From: Ruegeria lacuscaerulensis | GTDB taxonomy: Bacteria > Pseudomonadota > Alphaproteobacteria > Rhodobacterales > Rhodobacteraceae | DNA: 64,000 nucleotides | Direction: 5' to 3' | Assembly (NCBI RefSeq): GCF_013034685.1 | Contig: NZ_WQGO01000006.1 | Location: 248,001 to 312,000 of the forward strand | In this document: one piece after another, positions 10,142-21,297 of the stretch | Layout of the letters: the number at the start of each line of letters is the position of its first letter | Position numbering within the stretch: position 1 is the stretch's first letter | Position numbers and translations under genes: made by a program | The notes under the pieces: generated by a model | The model's database searches: none | What the model was told of the DNA's origin: nothing | The model's input: the letters and a program-made list of their open reading frames with translations, nothing else

Positions 10142-11221
10142 ATGTCGAACCATCAATTTGACGCCTTGATCGAAGAAACGCAGACGAAAGTGCGTGAAAG
10201 CCAGTCGCAGATCGAAAGCCTGACCTCGCGGATTGACGCGGCGCGGGCCAAGATTGGCACGGCCGAGGCAGATATCGACATCGAAAACGCCACGCTTGAA
10301 GACGTACATGCCCATACCGAGGTGATGAACGCCAATATTGCTGAGCTGATTATGGGGCTGGATGACGTCACCAACGCGTTCTCCAAGGATTTCGACGAGA
10401 TGCGCTCGAAAACTGGATGGGAGAGCTTTGTGGGCATTTTCGCCAAAGCCAAGTCCGAGTCGATGCGGCAGGAACGGATGCGCACCGCCAATATCGACGA
10501 CAAGCTGCAGGACCTGATCGCCAAATCTGACGTGATCGTGAAACTGCTGGAAGGGCAACTATCTGTGCTGGAGGAACAGCGCGTCAAGGTTGAAGACAAC
10601 CTGACCGGCACGCTGGACGACCGTGAGGCCACCGTGGCCGAATTGGAGGCGTTGCGCGCAGAAATTCAGGGCATGGACCCGACCATTATTACTCTGGAAA
10701 ACAAGATCAGCGTCGAACAGGACGCCGCCGCGCGGACCCAGTTAGAGACTGAATTGGCCGAGCTGAACAAGCAATACAACGCCAAGGTTCAGGAGGAACA
10801 GGTCAAGCTGGCCAAATCCCAAACGCTGGAGCGTTATATCGAAAAGGGCAAGACCTGGGTCGATTCACTGCAGAACCAGGCGGCGACGCAGATGGTGCTG
10901 ATCAACAAGCTGCAGACAGACACGCAACAGCGCGTCGTGCTGTATGACGCCCTGACTAAATCGCTGAAAACGGCGCAGCAGCAAGACGTGGCCCACCGCA
11001 TCAACGAGATCGGCGTTCAGACCGACCAAGAAGCGCAAACCGCCATGGCCGCCATCGGCACCGCGACCAACCAGAAAATGGCCGACATGCTTGAGGCGCA
11101 CGAAGGCCACATGGTCTTTGCCCGCGACGTGTTGGAGAAAAAAGCTAAGGCGGATGAACGCTTTGCCCGCCGGTTTGCCTCGATTGTCGAGAAGCATGAT
11201 AAGAATTTGTACGGGGGATGA
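10142..11221 (+). CDS. Coiled-coil protein of unknown function, possibly TelA-like
   Basis: The 359-residue product is almost wholly helical by composition, with long heptad-like stretches (QTKVRESQSQIESLTSRI; later ETELAELNKQYNAKVQEEQ) and no signal peptide or membrane segment. The C-terminal third (MVLINKLQTDTQQRVVLYDALTKS, then DQEAQTAMAAIGTATNQ) loosely recalls the TelA toxic-anion-resistance fold, but I cannot confirm this. It starts a nine-gene run. A 270-base gap separates it from the divergent esterase, and AGGGA precedes the ATG. The stop overlaps the next start by four bases (ATGA). Likely a scaffold or partner of the AAA+ ATPase; this is inference. Confidence 0.6.
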   Translation: MSNHQFDALIEETQTKVRESQSQIESLTSRIDAARAKIGTAEADIDIENATLEDVHAHTEVMNANIAELIMGLDDVTNAFSKDFDEMRSKTGWESFVGIFAKAKSESMRQERMRTANIDDKLQDLIAKSDVIVKLLEGQLSVLEEQRVKVEDNLTGTLDDREATVAELEALRAEIQGMDPTIITLENKISVEQDAAARTQLETELAELNKQYNAKVQEEQVKLAKSQTLERYIEKGKTWVDSLQNQAATQMVLINKLQTDTQQRVVLYDALTKSLKTAQQQDVAHRINEIGVQTDQEAQTAMAAIGTATNQKMADMLEAHEGHMVFARDVLEKKAKADERFARRFASIVEKHDKNLYGG

Positions 11222-11502
11222 CTGATTTCGAGAAGAGAACCCTAAAGCTATTTGTCATCACTTCAGCCTTTGTCAGTGTGATCGCTTTGGCTTTTGGCAT
11301 TACTTATGAGAATGGATCTGCAATTGCGACTGGGTCACTCGTCGCAGCTGTGAGCGTGCTGGTCGCGTTCCTGGGGCTTGCTCAATTCTGTGCCGAAAAA
11401 CTCAGAGACTACGGTTTGGGAGAAGGTACAGAACACTTGTACGGCAAGGCCCATGCGAAGCGTGTTTTTGGCGAAAATTACAAAAAACCTCTAAATGACT
11501 GA
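11218..11502 (+). CDS. Small two-TM membrane protein inside the AAA+ operon
   Basis: The 94-residue product has two hydrophobic segments, about residues 9-28 (LFVITSAFVSVIALAFG) and 33-56 (AIATGSLVAAVSVLVAFLG), and a polar C-tail ending ENYKKPLND. It overlaps the upstream gene by four bases and the downstream gene by eight, so translation is tightly coupled. Its codon use is visibly less GC-rich than its neighbours (many TTT, ATC/ATT, AAA codons), which hints at a younger or faster-evolving gene slotted into the operon. No family recognised. Confidence 0.65.
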   Translation: MTDFEKRTLKLFVITSAFVSVIALAFGITYENGSAIATGSLVAAVSVLVAFLGLAQFCAEKLRDYGLGEGTEHLYGKAHAKRVFGENYKKPLND

Positions 11503-12613
11503 CCCTACCCAAGATCATGTCGGCCTGACCGACACCTTCGCCTCGCGCCGATATTTCCGCAAATTCGAGGTGATCTCCGTCCACCTCCTGCGCGTGGCTG
11601 CGACGATGGAGGCTGAGGGCGCGATCAGCAAGCAAGAGGTGCGGATCGTGTCGCGCTACCTCTCGGGGCTGCTTTACACCTTCCGCGCGCTGAGTATGAA
11701 ATACCTGCTGGTCGGTCGCGACACGGGGCGGTTCTTTGGCAGCCTTGCTATGGACAAGCGCGACAGCGGGTTTCCGGTGTCGGCCGAATTGCTGACCATG
11801 GCCAACGACGCGCAGCAGGCGAAGGTGCATCTGGCGAATATGCCCTCGGAAGACGATCTGAAAACCGACATGGTGCGGACGATCATTGGCGACCGGGAAA
11901 TTCCGACCAAGCTGCAGTTCGCGCTGTCTCAAAGGCTCTATTACGAGGAATTGCTGAAAGGTCAGTTGTTCTGGTCCCGCAACGATCCCGAGTGCCACTG
12001 GATTGGAAATGAGGGTGAGCGGCGCAAGTTCCTGATCCATTGGGCGGTCTATGACAGCCAGATCAACCTGCCGGTCATCTACATGATGCAGGTGGAGGAC
12101 AGTGGCAGGACAGCTCTGCCCAAAGACCAACGCCGCTGGCCCGAGGTGCAGGCGCATCTGATGGCGCAATCCTTGGGCGGGTTGAAGCTGGTGACGATTG
12201 CCAAGGGGTTCGATCAGGATTTCGACGACCTGCACCCCAAACACCTGCGCCGCATCCATGTGGGGCCGATGTATTCCTCGGCCTATACGGAACAATCCGG
12301 GCCCCTGCGGCAAGTGCTGGAGGACGCGCAGGCCCCCGAGGGTCAGGATTGGGCGCTGGCCTGGACCACCGAGGAGTTGGAGAGCGAGGATGTCACCGAG
12401 GAACGCGCTGGGTGGTTCTCGACCGTTGAGCGCGAAATTTTTGCTTTGGATCCGTTCGGCGCGCAAGGGGCCGAGACTGGGGCCACGCGCACGCAGCGGT
12501 CGATCATCCTGCCTCAGCGCCCGTTTCAGGTTCTGGCAGAGCGCGACCCGCCGGGTTTTGGTGACGTGCGCAAATTCGTTGTCAGCAAGACGGGGCAAGT
12601 GTTGCGCTATTAG
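11495..12613 (+). CDS. Conserved protein of unknown function in the AAA+ operon
   Basis: The 372-residue soluble product shows no motif I recognise. It begins with a polar segment and a helical region (FRKFEVISVHLLRVAATMEAEG...KQEVRIVSRYLSGLLYTFRA) and continues as a mixed alpha-beta protein with FLIHWAVYDSQINLPVIYMMQVEDSG, an acidic stretch near residues 290-310 and a C-terminus ending FVVSKTGQVLRY. No signal peptide or membrane segment. Its start overlaps the preceding small membrane gene by eight bases. The high GC, full-length frame and position next to the ATPase argue it is a real operon partner. Confidence 0.65.
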   Translation: MTDPTQDHVGLTDTFASRRYFRKFEVISVHLLRVAATMEAEGAISKQEVRIVSRYLSGLLYTFRALSMKYLLVGRDTGRFFGSLAMDKRDSGFPVSAELLTMANDAQQAKVHLANMPSEDDLKTDMVRTIIGDREIPTKLQFALSQRLYYEELLKGQLFWSRNDPECHWIGNEGERRKFLIHWAVYDSQINLPVIYMMQVEDSGRTALPKDQRRWPEVQAHLMAQSLGGLKLVTIAKGFDQDFDDLHPKHLRRIHVGPMYSSAYTEQSGPLRQVLEDAQAPEGQDWALAWTTEELESEDVTEERAGWFSTVEREIFALDPFGAQGAETGATRTQRSIILPQRPFQVLAERDPPGFGDVRKFVVSKTGQVLRY

Positions 12614-12621
12614 ATTTTTTG

Positions 12622-12653
12622 CCTCCGGCGGAGGTATTTTTGAACAGAAGAAG
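12622..12653 (+). repeat. Intergenic hairpin repeat, short copy
   Basis: A short palindrome CCTCC-GGC-GGAGG (12622-12634) runs into TATTTTT and a tail identical over 23 bases (12631-12653) to the element in the glcD-glcE gap. As there, it lies just after a stop codon and just before the next start. The stem plus T-run could act as a weak terminator, tuning the AAA+ gene relative to the three genes before it. Confidence 0.7.
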
Positions 12654-12670
12654 CAAGGGCAGTTTTTGAG

Positions 12671-14602
12671 ATGAGTTTGACGTCAGATCAGATGGAATTG
12701 CGCGAAGACGATATTCGTAAGCATTACCCGGCAGCGACCGCCTTGCTGAACGGGTTCGAGCATGCGCCGCGGATTGCCAAACCGGTTGAGGCGGCGGTCG
12801 AGCGGTCCTCGGGCGTGTCGACGGGGCGGCGGTTTCGATCCACCACACCGGGGTTGGTGACTCGGCGTACCGTACGCGTGGATGGGGTGCATCTGGTCGA
12901 GCGGATCGAGGCTGCGGATGATGGCGATGCGTTGGTTTCTCCGCAACAGGCCACGACGCAGCAGGCTGTGCGCCGCGCGATTGCCATCGCCCTGGCCGTG
13001 GCCGAGGCTTATGCGGAGCAAACCGCTCTGGCCGATCTGAAGCGCGCCAATCTGGCGGGGGATTTGCCCGCTGCGCGCAAGAGCGAGTTTTCGGAATTGC
13101 TGACGGCTGAGGCTTTGATTACATCTCACACCTTCGGCAATGCACTGGCGTATCTGATGTCGTCCCATCTGGGCGAAACCACCGTTGATCTGGGCGAGAT
13201 TGAAGAAATTCTGACCGACAATGGCCAGCTTGCGCTGCACGGTGCCTTGTGGGAGCTGGATCAGATGTTGGCGAAACACGCCCCGGACGATGCGCATCTG
13301 ATCGCGGCCACCAGCGCCTATGCCGAACAACTGATGGACAAGGCCGCCCTACGCGCGCAGTCGGCGGGTCATTTGACCCCGTTCCAGAACGCCGCCTGGC
13401 ATATCGAGGCGGATGACTTGACGATCCGGGGGTTCGAACCCGCCTCCAAAGCCAAATCCACCACCCTGACCATGACGTTCAAGAAACCGAACGAAGTGGT
13501 GGGCAACCATATCGCGAAATATCAAGCGATGAAACTGGCCAAGATGGTGATGGCCTACGACTTTGACCGCCGCCTGAACCCGTTTGCGGAACTCGGTGGG
13601 TTCATCTTTACCTTCATGGGCGACGGCAAACCGGGCACCGGCAAGACCACCCTGATCCAGATGATGGCCGGGTTGATTAACGACTATTGCCAGAACGCGG
13701 GCTATCCGTTCCGCTATCAAAACCTGAGCACCGACAATATAGACAGCTATCAGGGCAAATCCGGTCAGAACGCCAAGGCGTTTATCAACACGATCATCGA
13801 CCCCTCGGTTATCGGCTTTGGCACCATCGATGATATCGACCAATTGGCAGGCAAACGCGGCGACCGGCAGTCCAGCGCGGGCCAACTGGAAATCACCGCC
13901 GTGCTGATGGAAAGCTTTGCAGGTGCCAACACTGTTGTGCGCGGCAATTGCACCTTTGGCATGTTCTCGAACTACCCCGAGAATGTGGACGACGCCCTAC
14001 GCCAGCGGGCGGGCGCGCGGTTCCTGGTGGACGGGCCGCAAACGCGCGAGGATTACATCGACATCCTGCACCTGTTAATGGGCCGCAACCACGATATCCC
14101 GCTGGGTGAACACGACGCCTATGCCGCGCAGGAGATTAAAAAGGCCGTCGCCGCCAGTTTCGAAAGCCACTCCCGCCCGCATGAGGACGCCTTGCTACAG
14201 GTCTATGACCGGGTTTCCGGTGAGATCGGCCAGATGGACACAATTGCCAAGCTGGGCACCTACCTCAAGGCGATCCAGCAGGCGGACGAGCGGTTTACGG
14301 GTCGCGCGATCAAGAACATCACCGACGCGGTCAAGGTCCGTGCGATGGATTTCGAACTGCCGGATGAGTGGATGGAGAACCCCGACCTGTTCCTGTTCCG
14401 CGACTACGACACCAAGAAGGGCATGATCGAGGAGCTGCGCCAGCCGATCACGGTCGAGATGGTGATGCAGGAAATCAACCGCTACGCCGACAGCGAGTTC
14501 CGCTATGCCGACAAGAGCGATGAGATCGCGATTGAGGACGCCGTGCGAGAGATGGGCCGAATGGAAGAGGCCAAGCGGCGATATCTGGAGGGGAAAGGGT
14601 GA
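12671..14602 (+). CDS. AAA+ family ATPase with large helical N-terminal domain
   Basis: The 643-residue product has a roughly 300-residue helical, ATPase-free N-terminal part and one AAA+ module: Walker A GKPGTGKTT near residues 319-327, Walker B VIGFGTIDDID near 380-390, and a likely arginine finger in RQRAGARFL near 443. A further helical C-terminal region ends in an acidic, charged tail. The double Asp (DD) replaces the usual DE of Walker B, so the catalytic glutamate needs checking. No membrane segment. It sits in the middle of the nine-gene operon and is the only obvious energy source there; MoxR- or remodelling-type activity is inferred. Confidence 0.8.
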   Translation: MSLTSDQMELREDDIRKHYPAATALLNGFEHAPRIAKPVEAAVERSSGVSTGRRFRSTTPGLVTRRTVRVDGVHLVERIEAADDGDALVSPQQATTQQAVRRAIAIALAVAEAYAEQTALADLKRANLAGDLPAARKSEFSELLTAEALITSHTFGNALAYLMSSHLGETTVDLGEIEEILTDNGQLALHGALWELDQMLAKHAPDDAHLIAATSAYAEQLMDKAALRAQSAGHLTPFQNAAWHIEADDLTIRGFEPASKAKSTTLTMTFKKPNEVVGNHIAKYQAMKLAKMVMAYDFDRRLNPFAELGGFIFTFMGDGKPGTGKTTLIQMMAGLINDYCQNAGYPFRYQNLSTDNIDSYQGKSGQNAKAFINTIIDPSVIGFGTIDDIDQLAGKRGDRQSSAGQLEITAVLMESFAGANTVVRGNCTFGMFSNYPENVDDALRQRAGARFLVDGPQTREDYIDILHLLMGRNHDIPLGEHDAYAAQEIKKAVAASFESHSRPHEDALLQVYDRVSGEIGQMDTIAKLGTYLKAIQQADERFTGRAIKNITDAVKVRAMDFELPDEWMENPDLFLFRDYDTKKGMIEELRQPITVEMVMQEINRYADSEFRYADKSDEIAIEDAVREMGRMEEAKRRYLEGKG

Positions 14603-14711
14603 CGGCTACTTTGATCAAGCAATCAAACTGTCCAGATCAGTTGGCTGAAATGCCTTCACGTTTTCTTGGTCGGCCGTTGTTACCTCATGTGATCGCGCAG
14701 ACTTTGAGCGT

Positions 14712-14735
14712 CAGAGCGCGCACTGATGCGCTCTG
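14712..14735 (+). other. Hairpin in the gap after the AAA+ ATPase gene
   Basis: The 154-base gap holds one clear structure: CAGAGCGC (14712-14719) pairing with GCGCTCTG (14728-14735) over an 8-base loop. No T-run follows, so it is not a standard terminator; it may be an RNA processing or stability element ahead of the small membrane gene. Nothing else is recognisable in the gap. Confidence 0.4.
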
Positions 14736-14756
14736 TCAGTCAAAGGAGAAAGAGAC

Positions 14757-15053
14757 ATGACGTTGACAGTCGCAATCACCGGTTTGGCCCTTGTTCTGGG
14801 CCTGATTTTGCCTTTGCGCTGGGGTGTGATCGGTTTTTTGGCTGCCGTAGCGGTACTGTTCCTGACCCAATTCGGCGTGAACGCGGGTGGCGGGTTCGAG
14901 GGCACCTCATGGGAAGAGACGCTGATCCTGTTTGAGGGCAGCGTGGTGTCTTACATCGGGTTCAACCTGCAAATCACCGCGCGGGCGTTTGCGTTGCCGT
15001 TGTTGGTGTTGGCGGTTGTTTTTGTACGCCGTGCGACAGCGAGTGCAGATTAG
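14757..15053 (+). CDS. Small membrane protein (98 aa) in the AAA+ operon
   Basis: Two to three hydrophobic segments: about residues 4-18, 21-40 (WGVIGFLAAVAVLFLTQFGV) and 78-92 (ALPLLVLAVVFVRR), separated by an extracytoplasmic-looking loop with GGGFEGTSWEE. Positive charges after the last segment place the C-terminus in the cytoplasm. AAAGGAGAAAGAG gives a strong ribosome binding site before the ATG. No family recognised. It is one of four small membrane proteins in this operon, unrelated to the others by eye. Confidence 0.65.
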   Translation: MTLTVAITGLALVLGLILPLRWGVIGFLAAVAVLFLTQFGVNAGGGFEGTSWEETLILFEGSVVSYIGFNLQITARAFALPLLVLAVVFVRRATASAD

Positions 15054-15091
15054 TCGATATTCATTCAACAAAAAGGAAAGGATAGGGCCAT

Positions 15092-15367
15092 TTGAAATCC
15101 AAAGGACTGAAAAGGATCATCTACATTCTAGCGCTGCCTTTGTCGGGCGCGTGGCTTATAGTCTTCGCCGAGTTCGGAGAGTTATGGCCGTTTTCCAACA
15201 TTCCAGTCGAGTTGGACGGTCAAACGCCTTCGAGCGCTTTTAGGAAGAGCTTTTTTGGGTTGGCCGTCGTCGTTTTCGTGATTGTAGACTTACCTAACAT
15301 TCTGGGATGGAACGACCGTGCGAAGCGACTGGGCTCCCATTCAAACGAAGATACGACCAATGCTTGA
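15092..15367 (+). CDS. Small two-TM protein (91 aa), low-GC, in the AAA+ operon
   Basis: The product starts MKSKGLKRIIYILALPLSGAW and has hydrophobic segments near residues 9-27 and 55-70 with a short loop between, then a polar C-terminus (RAKRLGSHSNEDTTNA). The only sensible start is a TTG at 15092 preceded by AAGGA. Codon use is distinctly less GC-rich than in neighbouring genes, like the 94-residue gene near the start of the operon, suggesting insertion of a lineage-specific gene. Real but weakly supported; a non-coding relic is possible. Confidence 0.5.
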   Translation: MKSKGLKRIIYILALPLSGAWLIVFAEFGELWPFSNIPVELDGQTPSSAFRKSFFGLAVVVFVIVDLPNILGWNDRAKRLGSHSNEDTTNA

Positions 15368-15424
15368 TGTACGAAACGTTGTCTGTGAACTCCCAGCGCG
15401 AATTCTACTCTTGGAGGCCTTCCA

Positions 15425-16762
15425 ATGATCCGCCTCATCGAAAAAGGCCTGATGTTCGGCAATCTCGTCCACATCTCCAGCCCGGCTTTGGTCGAGCGGT
15501 ATAACCGCGCGTTGCAGCATCTGGCGGGCAAGGCCACTCAGCTGACGGATTTCCACGTGGATATCTCGGGCTATTCCCCAGAGATCGGGCAGGAATTGGA
15601 CGACCCGCTCTACCTCAATCCAAACGGGGTGAACCGGCAGTTCATCCTGCTGACGACCGAGCAGAAACGCGCGCCTTTGCTGAACGTCAAATTCTCGACC
15701 TCGCGCGACATTCTGCGCGAGTTTATCGAGATGAACGAGGCGCAGTTGTTCGCCCTGACCGCCACCGATGCCGTGGCCGGAGAGCTGGTGAACTCGGTCT
15801 TCAAACTCAGCACGCCCAATGATCTGCTGAACCTGCGCAAGATTGAGATCGAGGCCGATACGGTCGGCGGCACCTTGCGCAAGGCTGAACAGCTTGCGGG
15901 TTTGGTCGAACGGTTCAAGACCGAACAGGACGCCTGGTTCGATGATGTTCTGATTGCCGAGATGATCGATACCGCCAAGGACACCGGTGACGTCACGCGC
16001 AACCCGGTTCGGCTGCGCCACACAGCCTTTGAGCAGCCGAATTTCTGGACCGCGCATTATGGCGGGCTTTACCTTTTTCCGGACCTCGACCATCCGGCGG
16101 CGATCTGTATGGGTGATACGCCTGACGATCTGTCGATGAAGTATGTGTTCCACAAATCGCAGCGCAATCAGATCGCCAAGTTTCTGGGCTACAACAATCT
16201 TGTCGAAACGGTCATCGAGGCGCGCGGCGTGGATTCCGCCGCCATTCTGCAACAAAAGATGGATTTTCTGACCGTGGCGGCGGCTGCGGGTTCAGGGGTT
16301 GATCTGACAGGGTTGGAGCGCCGCGACATGCGTCGTCTGGCCCGAAACCACGCCGACCACCTGCCCGATGCCTATCACGGGTTGGCGCAATTGCTGCGCT
16401 GGGCGACCGATGGCGGGCCGTGGCCGCGAATCACTTCGGACCATCCGGCCTATTTCTACACCCTGCGCGCAAAGGACACCCCGCATCGGGATCTGGTGAA
16501 TATGCTGCTGGCCGAATTGGCCCCGTTGGACCCGCGCCAGTTGTTCATCTGCCACAAGGAATTGTTCTACAGCACCTACAAAACCTGGCCTGAGAACAAG
16601 AAAACCTATGTTGCCGACTTTCTCGCGCGCGAGTATCAGGTGGACAAGGCTGGGGCTCGCGCCGCCTTGTTTGGGCATGAGCCCGACATGAGCGGCCAGG
16701 ACCGGGTCAGTGAGGCGGTGATTGCGCGGGTCGGCCCCTGGGGCGCATTGGAGAGAGGGTGA
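15425..16762 (+). CDS. Conserved protein, DUF6638-like, of unknown function
   Basis: The 445-residue soluble product begins MIRLIEKGLMFGNLVHISSP and matches, from memory, the DUF6638 family confined mainly to Rhodobacterales; I cannot check this. It contains NRQFILLTTEQKRAPLLNVKF, a helical middle region (about 130-180) and a C-terminal part with LFICHKELFYSTYKTWPENKK. No membrane segment or catalytic motif is evident. TTGGAGG lies eight bases before the ATG. The following gene starts immediately after its stop, so it is tied into the same operon as the AAA+ ATPase and DUF1523. Confidence 0.65.
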   Translation: MIRLIEKGLMFGNLVHISSPALVERYNRALQHLAGKATQLTDFHVDISGYSPEIGQELDDPLYLNPNGVNRQFILLTTEQKRAPLLNVKFSTSRDILREFIEMNEAQLFALTATDAVAGELVNSVFKLSTPNDLLNLRKIEIEADTVGGTLRKAEQLAGLVERFKTEQDAWFDDVLIAEMIDTAKDTGDVTRNPVRLRHTAFEQPNFWTAHYGGLYLFPDLDHPAAICMGDTPDDLSMKYVFHKSQRNQIAKFLGYNNLVETVIEARGVDSAAILQQKMDFLTVAAAAGSGVDLTGLERRDMRRLARNHADHLPDAYHGLAQLLRWATDGGPWPRITSDHPAYFYTLRAKDTPHRDLVNMLLAELAPLDPRQLFICHKELFYSTYKTWPENKKTYVADFLAREYQVDKAGARAALFGHEPDMSGQDRVSEAVIARVGPWGALERG

Positions 16763-17029
16763 ATGTTCGTCGCGTTACGATTTCTGATCCCCCTGTTGAT
16801 TGTCCTGACCGTGATCTATGTTGGGCTGTCGATCTATTCCCGTCTGGTGCGTCGCCGCAAGCTGATTGCCCATTGGGAAAAGAAAGGGTTGCGCGGTGAT
16901 CGTGACGCATTTCTTGAACGTGGGATGCGGCAGTATGACAACTCGTTTCGCAAGAAACTGTTGTTGGGTGTCTATGTCATCCCGCTTGGGGCGATTGCCC
17001 TGTTGATCTATATAACAAATTTCATGTGA
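16763..17029 (+). CDS. Small two-TM protein (88 aa) in the AAA+ operon
   Basis: The product has an N-terminal hydrophobic segment (about residues 4-24, FLIPLLIVLTVIYVGLSIY), a basic cytoplasmic loop (RRRKLIAHWEKKGLRGDRDAFL style) and a second hydrophobic segment at the C-terminus (LLLGVYVIPLGAIALLIYI). The ATG directly abuts the stop of the preceding gene, and DUF1523 starts 11 bases later. The charged cytoplasmic loop of about 40 residues may be the contact point with soluble operon partners. No family recognised. Confidence 0.7.
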   Translation: MFVALRFLIPLLIVLTVIYVGLSIYSRLVRRRKLIAHWEKKGLRGDRDAFLERGMRQYDNSFRKKLLLGVYVIPLGAIALLIYITNFM

Positions 17030-17040
17030 GGACCGGATAG

Positions 17041-17688
17041 ATGGTCTATGTCAAATGGGCGTTCATCATTGTGTTCTGGGGGCTGATTGCCTCGGTTTTG
17101 GAATACACTCTGCCACAACAGGATGTGGTGCGTATCGTGAAGACCGAGGTGCGGCGCGTCGATTTCGGTGAGAATTCGATCTTTTGGGCGCAGCAGGACA
17201 CTGGGCAAGAAGGTGCGCAGACCGTCAACCGCGACGTGCGCTTTGTCGAAACCTTCCGCCCCAACGGCAAGCCGCGCGTCTATCGCAACGAAGATACCGG
17301 TTGGGGCTGGCCACCCTATTTCAAGTTGGATAGTTCCAACTTGCAGGCCGAGTTGACCAACCTTGTTTCGACAGCAGACAACCCGCAATGGGTGGTTTTG
17401 CGCCACTATGGCTGGCGCAATCAGCTGATGTCGATCTTTCCCAACGCTGTTTCCGTGCGCCCCGTCGACAGCCCGGATGTGCGCCTGATCCCCTGGTTCA
17501 ACATCATTTTTCTGACGGTGCTCGCAGCGCTGATCTGGGCCATTTGGGTGCGCTGGCGACGCTTCCGCGCGGCGCGGGTCGATCCGGTGATCGAGAATGT
17601 TGAGGATGGGCTCTACGCTGCCGGCGACGCGATCGGCGAACAAAGCAGCCGTTTCAAAAAGTGGCTGAATTCCTGGAAATCGAAGTAA
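17041..17688 (+). CDS. DUF1523 family membrane protein
   Basis: The 215-residue product resembles DUF1523, a Rhodobacterales-enriched family of unknown function. It has an N-terminal membrane anchor (about residues 4-22), a periplasmic domain of about 125 residues with VRFVETFRPNGKPRVYRNED and NPQWVVLRHYGWRNQLMSIF, a second membrane segment (about 155-175) and a basic cytoplasmic tail ending KKWLNSWKSK. The family is known for this pattern; no activity has been assigned. It closes the nine-gene operon and is followed by a terminator-like hairpin. Confidence 0.75.
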   Translation: MVYVKWAFIIVFWGLIASVLEYTLPQQDVVRIVKTEVRRVDFGENSIFWAQQDTGQEGAQTVNRDVRFVETFRPNGKPRVYRNEDTGWGWPPYFKLDSSNLQAELTNLVSTADNPQWVVLRHYGWRNQLMSIFPNAVSVRPVDSPDVRLIPWFNIIFLTVLAALIWAIWVRWRRFRAARVDPVIENVEDGLYAAGDAIGEQSSRFKKWLNSWKSK

Positions 17689-17744: not shown

Positions 17745-18839
17745 CTAGCGAACAACAAATTCCGCATGGAGCGCCCCAGCGGCTTTGATTGTCTTGAGGA
17801 TGTCGATCATATCACGCGGCGACACACCAAGCGCGTTCAGGCCGGCGACAACCTCGGACAAGGTTGTCGCCTCGGGAATTTCGGCCAATCCCGTGCCTTC
17901 TTCCTCTTCGATCCCGGCGATCGTGCGGGACACCACAACAGTTTCTCCCCGCGCAAATGGGTTGGGCTGTATCGCAATTGGGGCTTCCTCGACCGTTAGG
18001 GTCAGGTTTCCTTGAGAGACCGCAACGCGCGAAATGCGCACCTCTTGTCCCATTACGATTGTGCCTGACCTTTGATCAACGACCACGCGGGCCTTTGTTT
18101 CGGGCTCGACCAGTATGTTCTCGATCCGACCAATCGCGTGTGCTGTTGATATGGCCTGAGTGGCGGCGATGTTCAGCTCAACGGTGCCCGAATCCCGCAT
18201 GATGGCAACAGGTCGGTTGAATTCGGTATTGATTGCCACTTCGATCCGGCCTGCGGTGGTGAAATCCGGTTCGCGCAGGGCCAATCGCATCTGTGTCAGG
18301 GTCGACAGATCAAAGTCGATTTCCCGTTCCACCCGCGCACCCGAAGGGATCACGCCCGCGGTCGGCACGCCTTGCACCACCGTTGCGGCCTGACCTTCAG
18401 CCGAGGCACCGCCCGCAAGAACTGTACCCTGCGCGACCGCATAGATCTGCCCGTCGGCGGCGTTCAGCGGGGTCATGATCAACGTCCCACCCAACAGGCT
18501 GCTGGAATCCCCTATGGCAGAGACTGTCACGTCAATCTGCCCACCTACCCGCGCAAATGGCGGCAGGCTGGCTGTCACCAGCACAGCCGCTACGTTTTTG
18601 GGACGAAAATCTTCGCCGGTGACGTTCACGCCCAGCCGTTCCAGAATGTTCGACATGATCTCTTCGGTGAAGGGCGAGTTGCGCAACCCATCCCCGGTTC
18701 CGTTCAGCCCGACCACAAGACCATAACCGACCAGATCGTTGCCGCGCACTCCGTCGAAATCCACCAGGTCTTTCAGGCGGATTGCACCGGCAGATGCCAG
18801 GCTGGGCAGCAACATTAAAAGGAAAACAAGAACTCTCAT
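17745..18839 (-). CDS. flgI: Flagellar P-ring protein FlgI
   Basis: FlgI forms the periplasmic P ring around the flagellar rod in the peptidoglycan layer. The 364-residue length is typical. A signal peptide (MRVLVFLLMLLPSLASAG) leads into the family hallmark IRLKDLVDFDGVRGNDLVGYGLVVGL-type start, with VVGLNGTGDGLRNSPFT near residues 42-58. The start ATG overlaps the flgL stop by four bases, so it is the last gene of flgE-flgK-flgL-flgI. FlgA, its assembly chaperone, is in the rightward block of the same cluster. Confidence 0.97.
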   Translation of the reverse strand: MRVLVFLLMLLPSLASAGAIRLKDLVDFDGVRGNDLVGYGLVVGLNGTGDGLRNSPFTEEIMSNILERLGVNVTGEDFRPKNVAAVLVTASLPPFARVGGQIDVTVSAIGDSSSLLGGTLIMTPLNAADGQIYAVAQGTVLAGGASAEGQAATVVQGVPTAGVIPSGARVEREIDFDLSTLTQMRLALREPDFTTAGRIEVAINTEFNRPVAIMRDSGTVELNIAATQAISTAHAIGRIENILVEPETKARVVVDQRSGTIVMGQEVRISRVAVSQGNLTLTVEEAPIAIQPNPFARGETVVVSRTIAGIEEEEGTGLAEIPEATTLSEVVAGLNALGVSPRDMIDILKTIKAAGALHAEFVVR

Positions 18840-19843
18840 CTCAGGAAATTCACCAGTGACAGGTTGGCGTTGCGGACGGTGACGGAATACAGGCTTTCCA
18901 ACTGGAACTGGACCGTTTGCAGCTGTGCCGCCGTTTCATAAGGGTCTGCGGCGATCAGTTTGTTGCGGCTGTATTCCAAACTGGTGCGGGCGGCATTGTT
19001 GCGCGTGGCGGCTTGTTCAATCCGCGCCTCGGCCACACCGACCCTGGCCCGCAGATTGACGGTTTCGTTCTGGGTGTTGGCCAGATCGACCCCGAGTTGC
19101 TTGAAGAGATCTGTTCGCTGATCCCTTGTAATTCCCAGGGCTGGATCTGCAACAGCGGCTGCGACAGCGATATCGCGCAAGGCCGCCTTGAGCGCAGGAT
19201 CGGTTGCCGTCACCGGGACTCTGACGCTTTCTGATTCCGATATTTGCATTGGGGACAGCGTCGTTGCAGAGCCCTGATAGATCACCGCATCAAAACCTGC
19301 TGGATCGTTGAACCAATCCTCGGCGCGCTGACGGATATCGGTCACTGCGACCGCGCCTGTTAGCTCGGTCTTGAGCGCGGTCAGCAAAGTTTGCGCAGAC
19401 GGCAAAGGAGATACATCGGTCGCCGTTCCGGAAAACAGGCTGCGCCCGCCCGCCCGCGTGTTCAGCGCAGAAATAACCGTGTCCAACTCATTCTGCGCCT
19501 GAACCGAGGCGTTTTCGTGGGTCACGGCCTGGTTGGATGTTCCGAAAGACAGCAGAGATGCAGTGATTTCCGAGACGGAATGGTCAACGGTTGTCAGGCT
19601 CAGCTGCATGGCATCGGTGAACAACCCGGCCTCGGACGTGGCGACCTGAAAGGCATCAAGTCGGGCAAGGCTGCGATCCAGATCCAAGAGATGCGAATAA
19701 TCTCCGTCCAAACGGCCCGATACATCCTGCACTTTGCCGGTGGCCATTTCGTAGGACAGTGTTTCGATCTGGTTTTTGATGTCGGTCGCGCGAGTTTTCA
19801 ACGTCAAACCCCGCGCCAGATCTCCGATAGACGTCAGAACCAT
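18836..19843 (-). CDS. flgL: Flagellar hook-filament junction protein FlgL
   Basis: FlgL (HAP3) links the hook cap FlgK to the flagellin filament and is exported by the flagellar type III system. The 335-residue product has the flagellin-like N-terminal helical domain (residues 1-140, with SLLSFGTSNQAVTHENASVQ) and a C-terminal helix ending VTVRNANLSLVNFLR. No signal peptide, as expected. It lies two bases after flgK and overlaps flgI, a tight operon. Divergent for the family overall, but the position and both terminal domains fit. Confidence 0.9.
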   Translation of the reverse strand: MVLTSIGDLARGLTLKTRATDIKNQIETLSYEMATGKVQDVSGRLDGDYSHLLDLDRSLARLDAFQVATSEAGLFTDAMQLSLTTVDHSVSEITASLLSFGTSNQAVTHENASVQAQNELDTVISALNTRAGGRSLFSGTATDVSPLPSAQTLLTALKTELTGAVAVTDIRQRAEDWFNDPAGFDAVIYQGSATTLSPMQISESESVRVPVTATDPALKAALRDIAVAAAVADPALGITRDQRTDLFKQLGVDLANTQNETVNLRARVGVAEARIEQAATRNNAARTSLEYSRNKLIAADPYETAAQLQTVQFQLESLYSVTVRNANLSLVNFLR

Positions 19844-19845
19844 TC

Positions 19846-21297
19846 TTACAACCTCAACAGGGTTTCCATCAGCTCATCCACTACCGAGATCAGCCGCGCA
19901 TTGGCGGCGTAGGTCTGCTCGATCTGGATGAGGCGCTGTAATTCCTGATCCGTGTCGACGCCCTGCTCGGCTTCGATCCGGGTCATCTCTTCTTGCGTGC
20001 TGTTGGCGAAAACCAGACGCTGATTGGCCGTATGCGCGTCGGCCCCGGTTTTGGACATAAGCGCTTCGGTCAAGTCCGAGGCGCGCATATCTCCGGTGCC
20101 GAAAACCGGGTTTGCAACCGGCCGGGCCGCACTGAGGATGGCGCTGAACGCATGCAATTGCGAGGCATCCCCCGGATCACCCGGAGCCGCCGCCCCAAGC
20201 CCCGCGCGCAGCCGCCAGCTTTGGCCACCCGCATCAGGATCGACGATTTGGTTCAGACTGATCCGCGACGCAAGTCCAGCCGCAGCAGCCGGGTCAAACC
20301 GATTGCTTGCATCCGTAAACACCCCTGCGTCAGTGGCGAGGGCGGTCGGGTCCAGCCCCGGTGTTTCGAACCGTTCGATCAGGTCTTGGGCCACCGTGTC
20401 CAGATTGGACTGAACCTCAACTGCAAGCGCGTCGCGGATATGGAACTGCGCGGCCAGTGCGCCGCCTCGGATCTGCGCGTTGTCGCCTAATGTTCGAACC
20501 GAGTTACCGTTTAGTGTCAGACCCGAAAGCAGCCCGTTGTCGACGGTCATATGGGGCTTGGTGTCACCGGTCGTGGTGTAAGAGAACTCGGCCGCGCTGC
20601 CCTCTAAGAGGATCAAGCCGCCGTCAGAATAGATCGATACCTGATCATTCGCGCGCGGCACGACGTTGACGGGTAAGATCTGGTTCACCTGATCAATCAG
20701 TACTTGGCGCTGATCCAGAAGCGCGCCGATGTCGCCCCCCACATATTTCACGGCGGGGATTTTGGCGTTGATCTCTTCCAGATCTTTGAGCGTCTGGTTC
20801 AGGCTGTCCACCTGTTTGCCGATTGTGCGATCAGCGTCCGATCGCATCTGACGCAACCCTTCCGAGGTCGCGTTCAATTTGTCTGCAAGATCGCGCCCCG
20901 TACGCGCCACCTGATCCAACCGTTCGGACGACTCGGGCAGGCTGGCGGCGGTAATCAGACTGCCGTCGAAATCGGCAAGCCTAGCCGCGAGCGAGGTCGC
21001 ATCGTCGGGTCCGCCCACCAGACGTTCGAGTTGAGTGTGAAACCCCGAAACTACCGTTTGAAGGGAAAGATCCGCGTCCGCGCTTCGCCTATTGGCCGTC
21101 AGGACCGGGTCCTGGTGCCGAACCACGCCGACAGTTCGAACGCCGTGGCCGGAAATCGTGTTGGTCGTCAGCTCCAGCGACCTGCGCGCGTATCCCGGTG
21201 TCAGCGCATTGGCGATATTGCCGGAGACAACAGCGGCGCCACGGCTGGCGGCGGTCAGGCCGCCGATGGCGTTGTTCAAGGCTGTCGACATGTTCAT
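19846..21297 (-). CDS. flgK: Flagellar hook-associated protein FlgK
   Basis: FlgK (HAP1) forms the first junction ring between hook and filament. The 483-residue product begins MNMSTALNNAIGGLTAASRG with the rod/hook N-terminal motif VVSGNIANALTPGYARRSLEL, carries a long variable middle, and ends with IQIEQTYAANARLISVVDELMETLL, the conserved C-terminal helix. I favour the first ATG (21297) because GGGGGA lies eight bases upstream. The flgE stop is 18 bases before it, consistent with one operon. Confidence 0.95.
   Translation of the reverse strand: MNMSTALNNAIGGLTAASRGAAVVSGNIANALTPGYARRSLELTTNTISGHGVRTVGVVRHQDPVLTANRRSADADLSLQTVVSGFHTQLERLVGGPDDATSLAARLADFDGSLITAASLPESSERLDQVARTGRDLADKLNATSEGLRQMRSDADRTIGKQVDSLNQTLKDLEEINAKIPAVKYVGGDIGALLDQRQVLIDQVNQILPVNVVPRANDQVSIYSDGGLILLEGSAAEFSYTTTGDTKPHMTVDNGLLSGLTLNGNSVRTLGDNAQIRGGALAAQFHIRDALAVEVQSNLDTVAQDLIERFETPGLDPTALATDAGVFTDASNRFDPAAAAGLASRISLNQIVDPDAGGQSWRLRAGLGAAAPGDPGDASQLHAFSAILSAARPVANPVFGTGDMRASDLTEALMSKTGADAHTANQRLVFANSTQEEMTRIEAEQGVDTDQELQRLIQIEQTYAANARLISVVDELMETLLRL

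What the first reader, a model, noticed from the sequence alone, without database searches (positions are those of the whole stretch)
10142..17688. Nine-gene operon of unknown function built around an AAA+ ATPase
Nine same-strand genes with start-stop overlaps or short gaps encode one AAA+ ATPase, a long coiled-coil protein, two large soluble proteins of unknown function (one DUF6638-like), DUF1523 and four small membrane proteins. None has an assigned activity. The set has the parts of a membrane-associated remodelling machine: an energy source, a scaffold, soluble partners and several membrane anchors. Known: AAA+ proteins remodel partners. Inferred: the nine act together.
Basis: partly seen in the sequence, partly recalled or inferred. 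Interest (0 to 1): 0.8.

Follow-up and report, generated by a model that had tools for sequence, protein, structure and literature searches.

The report
Modular AAA+ operon with swappable parts
A marine bacterium carries an undescribed four-gene engine built on an ATP-driven AAA+ protein, joined to a pair of membrane genes and interrupted by gene slots whose contents differ between close relatives; it may be an unknown machine at the inner membrane.

Summary
The nine same-strand ORFs are present, but not as one unit. Four genes form the core: coiled-coil protein (CC1), soluble protein S3, AAA+ ATPase, DUF6638. ATPase, CC1 and DUF6638 occur in the identical 89 of 149 genomes of the order. The four are collinear in all 122 non-identical loci that hold all of them (125 of 130 loci read), up to rhizobia and Vibrio plasmids. 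TM8-DUF1523 is a separate module: DUF1523 is in 143 of 149 genomes; at 20 sites fetched away from the core, TM8 precedes it in 17. Rhizobial-type loci have DUF2333 instead. The other three small membrane ORFs fill two hypervariable slots (18 slot-2 types in 21 Ruegeria-type genomes), rich in membrane proteins (55 of 68 called genes against 167 of 887 flanking ones). S3 has a confident model without fold match. Best reading, mechanism inferred: an ATPase-driven machine docked on an inner-membrane adaptor, CC1 being its scaffold or substrate. Membership in PspA/Snf7, Vps4 or TelA families was not met by sequence; defence enrichment and allele exchange were not supported.

The parts
10142..11221 (+). 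CC1, 359-aa all-helical coiled-coil protein; core gene, in most loci the most conserved of the nine by identity
   Evidence: same 89 of 149 genomes as the ATPase
11222..11494 (+). slot 1 (CC1/S3 junction): variable insertion site
   Evidence: gap of 150 nt or more in 71 of 122 loci; 15 types in 21 Ruegeria-type genomes
11218..11502 (+). TM2, 94-aa two-segment membrane ORF, occupant of slot 1; not part of the conserved system
   Evidence: no relative in the slots of 122 loci; weak sub-threshold SLATT_1 match
11495..12613 (+). S3, 372-aa soluble protein, core gene, no Pfam match at E up to 10, confident model without fold match
12616..12636 (+). hairpin followed by T-run in the S3/AAA gap; copy of a dispersed genome repeat (16 places with up to 1 mismatch, 7 exact)
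12671..14602 (+). AAA+ ATPase, 643 aa, classical AAA domain at residues 319-452, about 300-aa N-terminal region without Pfam match
13619..13651 (+). Walker A motif GDGKPGTGKTT (residues 317-327), ten of eleven positions invariant in 29 rows
   Evidence: motif name recalled
13811..13834 (+). Walker B region IGFGTIDD (residues 381-388), seven of eight positions invariant in 29 rows
   Evidence: motif name recalled
13979..14020 (+). second region of homology with arginine-finger candidates R444, R446, R450 (invariant in 29 rows)
   Evidence: assignment recalled
14603..15424 (+). slot 2 (AAA/DUF6638 junction): hypervariable insertion site
   Evidence: gap of 150 nt or more in 99 of 122 loci; 18 types in 21 Ruegeria-type genomes
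14757..15053 (+). TM5, 98-aa membrane protein, occupant of slot 2
   Evidence: relatives in slot 2 of nine other loci
15092..15367 (+). TM6, 91-aa ORF (TTG start), weak hydrophobic segments, occupant of slot 2; coding status unproven
   Evidence: no relative found in the slots of 122 loci
15425..16762 (+). DUF6638 protein, core gene
   Evidence: PF20343, 757.5 bits; same 89 of 149 genomes
16733..16744 (+). C-terminal GPWG tail of the DUF6638 protein, after a variable linker; in 24 of 30 aligned rows; possible docking peptide (inference)
16763..17029 (+). TM8, 88-aa membrane protein with two hydrophobic segments; pairs with DUF1523
17041..17688 (+). DUF1523 protein, hydrophobic segments at residues 2-20 and 152-170 with a long region between them
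   Evidence: PF07509, 247.4 bits; 143 of 149 genomes

Best explanation
The run is a modular AAA+ machine. Shown: CC1, ATPase and DUF6638 are inherited all-or-none in the order and lie collinear with S3; the core sits before a membrane module that is TM8-DUF1523 or DUF2333 (neither in the two Vibrio loci); two junctions are variable slots whose recognisable genes are mostly small membrane proteins. Inferred: the ATPase, which keeps the residues of an active classical AAA protein, forms a ring that remodels or disassembles an assembly of the coiled-coil protein CC1; S3 and DUF6638 are adaptors, DUF6638 being the one that docks the engine on the membrane module, because its gene is tightly joined to it and its product often ends in a conserved peptide; the outcome is an ATP-driven rearrangement at the inner membrane. 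The slot proteins would be exchangeable membrane clients or partners of this engine, or merely insertions tolerated there.
For: ATPase, CC1 and DUF6638 in the identical 89 of 149 genomes of the order; in one of them, G123, all three are decayed together on one contig. S3 was found in 48 of 48 long loci fetched up. Of 130 loci read 125 hold all four genes; of the other five, four are cut by contig ends. The four genes are collinear on one strand in all 122 non-identical complete loci. DUF6638 and the membrane module are tightly joined: a gap of 150 nt or more at DUF6638-TM8 in 0 of 97, TM8-DUF1523 0 of 97, DUF6638-DUF2333 1 of 19, against 99 of 122 at AAA-DUF6638. Module swap: 101 DUF1523, 19 DUF2333, 2 neither, of 122. 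Key Walker A, Walker B, sensor and arginine positions invariant in 29 of 29 ATPase rows and kept in Vibrio. Strong purifying selection in eight genomes of the genus (median dN/dS 0.037-0.039 for CC1, S3, AAA). CC1 model all-helical with two long consecutive helices 118-191 and 195-289.
Against: No physical contact was tested. The CC1 model is only moderately confident (pLDDT 77, pTM 0.67) and its solved-structure matches are weak. TM8-DUF1523 exists without the core in the AAA-minus genomes fetched, so it need not be the machine's own anchor. Vibrio carries the core with neither membrane module. L129 has CC1, S3 and AAA without DUF6638 downstream. A terminator-like hairpin lies between S3 and AAA (terminator-like sites overall 11 against 8.9 expected), so one transcript is not assured. 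The 149 genomes are related, so co-occurrence counts are not independent.
Confidence: 0.45

Rival explanations
1. A phage-defence or bacterial-conflict system: the core senses or executes, and the slots carry exchangeable effectors (small membrane proteins, nucleases).
For: Patchy inheritance (89 of 149 genomes), repeated gain or loss beside DUF1523, presence on Vibrio and rhizobial plasmid records (10 records), slot genes such as an Mrr-type nuclease, a DnaQ-type exonuclease with BRCT and a DUF2971 protein with PADLOC matches of E 7e-34, 1e-31 and 5e-20, weak sub-threshold SLATT_1 match of TM2.
Against: Core proteins give no full-length PADLOC match: the ATPase matches TRIP13 over its AAA domain at E 4e-6 and CC1 long coiled-coil models at E 7e-4. 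66 length-matched flanking genes scanned the same way also gave PADLOC matches (10 families, one at E 4e-51) against 20 families in 66 slot ORFs picked by hand, so enrichment is not shown. Neighbours recognised by eye are flagellar, metabolic or stress genes, not a defence island.
Confidence: 0.22
2. An envelope-stress or membrane-homeostasis system in the manner of PSP or ESCRT-III with Vps4: CC1 polymerises on the membrane and the ATPase recycles it.
For: Coiled-coil protein plus classical AAA ATPase plus inner-membrane partners; the published PSP survey reports PspA or Snf7 genes beside AAA ATPases (PMC11237479, passages read).
Against: No PspA_IM30 or Snf7 match for CC1 and no MIT or Vps4 C-terminal domain in the ATPase in a scan at E up to 10, whose filters drop most matches above 0.1; no PspA, Vipp1 or ESCRT-III chain among the 50 matches shown of 974 for the CC1 model.
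Confidence: 0.2
3. Two unrelated neighbours: a conserved four-gene AAA+ system of any cytoplasmic function happens to be co-transcribed with a resident TM8-DUF1523 pair; the slots are neutral insertion sites.
For: TM8-DUF1523 stands without core genes at all 20 sites fetched (TM8 recognised in 17), and core-linked and solo DUF1523 are interleaved in the tree (12 changes, at least 6 forced); slots are nearly empty in some loci.
Against: All 89 ATPase genomes have DUF1523 (chance 0.0036 given 143 of 149, kinship ignored), DUF6638-TM8-DUF1523 junctions are tight in 97 of 97 loci, and G119 has a solo pair besides the core-linked one. The called slot genes are co-oriented (70 of 75) and membrane-rich, which a neutral site would not predict.
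Confidence: 0.13

Closest known systems
ESCRT-III/Vps4 and PspA/Snf7 operons with AAA+ ATPases
   Same: a coiled-coil protein next to a classical AAA ATPase, with membrane partners (PMC11237479, passages)
   Different: CC1 matches neither PspA nor Snf7 by sequence, nor do such chains appear in the 50 structure matches shown; the ATPase lacks MIT and Vps4 C-terminal domains by Pfam; DUF1523 does not occur in that paper's main text (S3, DUF6638 and DUF2333 were not looked up there)
TelA/XpaC (toxic anion resistance) pair
   Same: cytoplasmic coiled-coil protein of about 360-400 aa (resemblance recalled); a TelA gene exists elsewhere in this genome
   Different: CC1 has no PF05816 match; hhalign CC1-TelA E 0.011 is no better than the S3-TelA control at 0.0083
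Alpha-pore-forming toxin B components (SmhB, AhlB) and SMC coiled coils
   Same: highest-ranked solved-structure matches of the CC1 model: long helices
   Different: best E 8e-4, TM-scores of SmhB/AhlB at most 0.43, no hydrophobic segment in CC1; most likely generic coiled-coil resemblance
DUF1523 and DUF2333 membrane protein families
   Same: Pfam members form the 3' membrane modules
   Different: no function given by Pfam; DUF1523 also exists without the core

Membership tests
classical AAA ATPase (PF00004) | Pfam match above the curated cut-off | tested here: met
   45.6 bits against 21.2
classical AAA ATPase (PF00004) | conserved Walker A, Walker B, sensor 1 and arginine-finger region | tested here: met
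   key positions invariant in 29 of 29 rows; motif assignment recalled
classical AAA ATPase (PF00004) | ATP hydrolysis and ring assembly | not testable with these tools
   needs protein
[quoted passage not shown]
   not among Pfam matches at E up to 10
PspA/ESCRT-III (for CC1) | PspA_IM30 or Snf7 sequence profile | tested here: not met
   no such match at E up to 10
PspA/ESCRT-III (for CC1) | ESCRT-III fold | tested here: inconclusive
   model pLDDT 77; no PspA or ESCRT-III chain in the 50 matches shown of 974
TelA (for CC1) | PF05816 match or significant profile-profile match | tested here: not met
   no match; hhalign E 0.011 against control 0.0083
DUF6638 | PF20343 match over full length | tested here: met
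   757.5 bits, profile 1-439 of 439
DUF1523 | PF07509 match over full length | tested here: met
   247.4 bits, profile 4-176 of 176
SLATT_1 (for TM2) | score above curated cut-off | tested here: not met
   15.1 bits against 41 in NCBIfam, 12.3 against 26.3 in Pfam
known anti-phage system | full-length match of core proteins to PADLOC models | tested here: not met
   only partial AAA-domain and coiled-coil matches; none for S3, DUF6638, DUF1523 at E up to 1

The most novel reading that the evidence does not exclude
A so far undescribed class of AAA+ machine in which one conserved cytoplasmic engine (CC1-S3-ATPase-DUF6638) is docked on interchangeable inner-membrane adaptors (TM8-DUF1523 or DUF2333) and inserts, extracts or fires a rapidly exchanged set of small membrane proteins carried in two built-in operon slots.
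Probability: 0.2. Interest if true: 0.85.

Novelty: new variant of a known kind. Interest (0 to 1): 0.6.

Why it matters
Three of the four core proteins (CC1, S3, DUF6638) and both membrane families have no assigned function, S3 has a confident model without a usable match among solved structures, and the set is common in the order sampled (89 of 149 genomes). The separation of engine, membrane adaptor and cargo slots gives a clear set of knock-outs, and closely related AAA-plus and AAA-minus genomes exist (G120 in the window's genus lacks the core), so the role of the machine can be tested directly.

Tried and rejected
Diversifying allele exchange at the membrane end: TM8 and DUF1523 show raised dS in the window's genus (medians 1.5 and 1.8 against 0.52-0.58 in CC1, S3 and AAA), but the flagellar neighbours flgI, flgL and flgK show the same (1.8-2.0), likewise in 12 Ruegeria loci, and the three other groups tested show no clear contrast (Sulfitobacter-like and Tateyamaria for TM8 and DUF1523; a rhizobial group for DUF2333). 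Claim dropped; only faster amino-acid change of TM8 and DUF1523 stands.

Foreign origin of slots from low GC: slots are 5-7 points lower than the core, but the stable gene TM8 is 5.7 points lower too, so not decisive.

Slots as defence-gene hot spot: individual matches are real, but the 66 slot ORFs were picked by hand from about 80 candidates plus the window, and 66 randomly drawn flank genes also match PADLOC; no enrichment claimed.

Slot types: 18 and 15 types in 21 genomes rest on 60% mutual coverage; if any shared 150-nt stretch counts as the same type there are 11 (slot 2) and 14 (slot 1). The slot gene caller found genes in only 48 of 125 loci; slot ORFs with unusual codon use are missed.

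CC1 as TelA: not supported. S3 related to DUF6638: no. S3 fold: best PDB match E 0.15, best viral match E 1.2e-3 with TM-score 0.10, neither usable. No relative of the ATPase in viral contigs by pattern scan. In the class of G568 (taken to be Gammaproteobacteria) 1 of 274 genomes, G568 itself, at E 1e-40. Promoter and terminator scans gave numbers near chance. Papers: searches for DUF6638/DUF1523 (4 papers, listing only), DUF2333 (1 paper, listing only), Pfam numbers and family names (1 paper, listing only) and ESCRT-III/PspA terms (5 papers, listing; one read in passages); nothing seen there describes this cluster. The library lacks most subscription journals.
Full report
What is there. Nine same-strand ORFs lie at 10142-17688. 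Pfam gives a classical AAA domain (gene 4), DUF6638 (gene 7) and DUF1523 (gene 9); the coiled-coil protein CC1 and the soluble protein S3 match nothing above cut-off. By hydropathy TM2, TM5, TM6 and TM8 are small membrane proteins, TM6 weakly so. The ATPase is 93.6-96.3% identical to that of 13 named loci, 12 of them Ruegeria and one an unnamed MAG, then drops to 80%, so the window is from Ruegeria or a close relative.

The core. The ATPase was sought in 149 genomes of the order and found in 89. DUF6638 and CC1 were sought in the same 149 and found in the identical 89 (handles compared). In one of the 89, G123, all three are present only as fragments on one contig: they decayed together. S3 was not sought genome-wide, but was found in 48 of 48 long loci. 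Of 130 loci read, 125 hold all four genes; of the five that do not, four lack a gene at a contig end (L117, L138, L144, L151) and one, L129, truly lacks DUF6638 in the 9 kb downstream. After removal of three identical ones, the four genes are collinear on one strand in all 122 remaining loci. These span Rhodobacterales, Hellea and Robiginitomaculum, Roseibium, Aestuariispira, rhizobial genera such as Mesorhizobium, Aminobacter, Nitratireductor, Shinella and Sinorhizobium, and 0.9-Mb Vibrio plasmids, where CC1 and S3 are confirmed by profile comparison (E 4e-53 and 1e-48). In a sample drawn evenly from the class 7 of 385 genomes have CC1 and the same 7 have DUF6638 above cut-off, with one more below it. 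In a sample of the phylum 24 of 299 have a CC1 match, one of them (G568) outside the class, the weakest four being distant relatives without the other core genes. G568 alone of 274 genomes of its class has the ATPase.

The membrane module. Of the 122 loci 101 continue with DUF1523 (TM8 recognised in 97), 19 with DUF2333 (rhizobial genera and relatives, plus two MAGs without genus name), and the two Vibrio loci with neither; none has both. DUF1523 itself is in 143 of 149 genomes of the order, including all 89 with the ATPase, so 54 have it without the ATPase. I fetched 20 DUF1523 sites not linked to the core, 19 from AAA-minus genomes (19 of 54) and one from G119: none holds a core gene, and TM8 precedes DUF1523 in 17 of 20. 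One of them, G120, is in the window's genus and keeps the flagellar neighbour. Seven genomes have two DUF1523 genes; only the second copy of G119 was looked at, and it is a solo pair. In a tree of 45 core-linked and 20 solo DUF1523 proteins the labels are interleaved: 12 changes, at least 6 forced by well supported branches, though fewer than in shuffles (mean 17). So the engine has joined or left the TM8-DUF1523 pair repeatedly.

The slots. Junction lengths show where insertions are tolerated: a gap of 150 nt or more occurs at CC1-S3 in 71 of 122 loci, S3-AAA 15 of 122, AAA-DUF6638 99 of 122, DUF6638-TM8 0 of 97, TM8-DUF1523 0 of 97, DUF6638-DUF2333 1 of 19. In 21 Ruegeria-type genomes slot 1 has 15 and slot 2 has 18 different contents at 60% mutual coverage, 14 and 11 if any shared 150 nt counts. 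A codon-based caller found 75 slot genes in 48 of 125 loci: 70 run with the operon and 57 of those 70 have a hydrophobic segment. For non-identical loci it is 55 of 68, against 167 of 887 genes of 40-400 aa called in the same way in the flanks (Fisher p 1e-25; related loci are not independent). Of 15 same-strand ORF families found in three or more loci 12 are membrane proteins, and 55 of their 97 members start within about 15 nt of the preceding stop; of all 35 families in two or more loci, some of them probably not coding, 19 are. Soluble ones include an Mrr-type nuclease, DUF559, an exonuclease with BRCT and DUF2971. Pieces of the neighbouring core genes are duplicated inside four slots (AAA C-terminus in L052 and L172, S3 N-terminus in L150 and L181), perhaps a trace of how cassettes enter. 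TM5 of the window belongs to a family seen in nine other loci; TM2 and TM6 have no relative there.

Proteins. The ATPase keeps the key Walker A, Walker B, sensor and arginine positions in 29 of 29 rows, Vibrio included in a second alignment. CC1 is modelled as an all-helical protein with two long consecutive helices (pLDDT 77); residues 281-325, modelled with low confidence, are as conserved as most of the rest (0.83 mean column identity in 30 rows), which would fit a part that folds on a partner (inference). Solved-structure matches are weak and generic. S3 gives a good model (pLDDT 88, pTM 0.87) without usable match in the PDB (best E 0.15) or among viral proteins. DUF6638 ends in a conserved GPWG tail in 24 of 30 rows.

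How it most likely works. Inferred: a ring of the ATPase acts on CC1 assemblies; S3 and DUF6638 connect the engine to the membrane module; slot proteins are exchangeable partners at the membrane. None of these contacts was tested. Rivals are a conflict system, a PSP/ESCRT-like homeostasis system, and mere neighbourhood. The conflict reading is weakened by the control scan of flanking genes and by neighbours that look like housekeeping genes (most names by eye). The PSP/ESCRT reading is weakened by failed sequence tests, though it may still work in a similar way. The published survey of PSP partners describes AAA ATPases beside PspA or Snf7 and does not mention DUF1523 (PMC11237479, passages).

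Selection. In eight genomes of the window's genus CC1, S3 and AAA have median dN/dS near 0.04, DUF6638 0.085, TM8 and DUF1523 0.11-0.12. The raised dS of TM8 and DUF1523 is shared by the flagellar neighbours and is therefore not taken as evidence about this operon.

Verdict. The new points are the all-or-none core, the detachable membrane module with a second type in rhizobia, and the two hypervariable slots.

Noticed in passing
L113:12310-21423 and L114:9311-18423: Vibrio plasmids of 0.88-0.93 Mb carry the four-gene core and, right after it, an mfd gene (and a secA gene about 8 kb further on in L113).
   Followed up: no
window 12616-12636: Hairpin with T-run between S3 and AAA is one of 16 copies (7 exact) of a dispersed repeat in this genome.
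   Followed up: partly
window 17745-21297 and L142:13847-17399: Flagellar genes (flgI, flgL, flgK; names recalled, not from a call) show raised synonymous divergence within the genus compared with genes upstream.
   Followed up: partly
L056:12229-13151: TM8 resembles one allele group and DUF1523 another: a mosaic of two types within the genus.
   Followed up: no
   Followed up: partly
L103:5647-18587: In G568 the six-gene set lies between genes that look like ectoine catabolism (doe genes, names recalled); L129 has some similar neighbours.
   Followed up: no
L115:12106-13851: Slot 2 on Sinorhizobium meliloti pSymB holds a DUF559 endonuclease gene and an IS4-like transposase.
   Followed up: no
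L197:479-3570: Elsewhere in this genome a TelA gene lies in a run of three same-strand ORFs.
   Followed up: partly
G123 contig C52:21372-24806: Decayed copy: fragments of CC1, ATPase and DUF6638 with stops, all in 3.4 kb.
   Followed up: no
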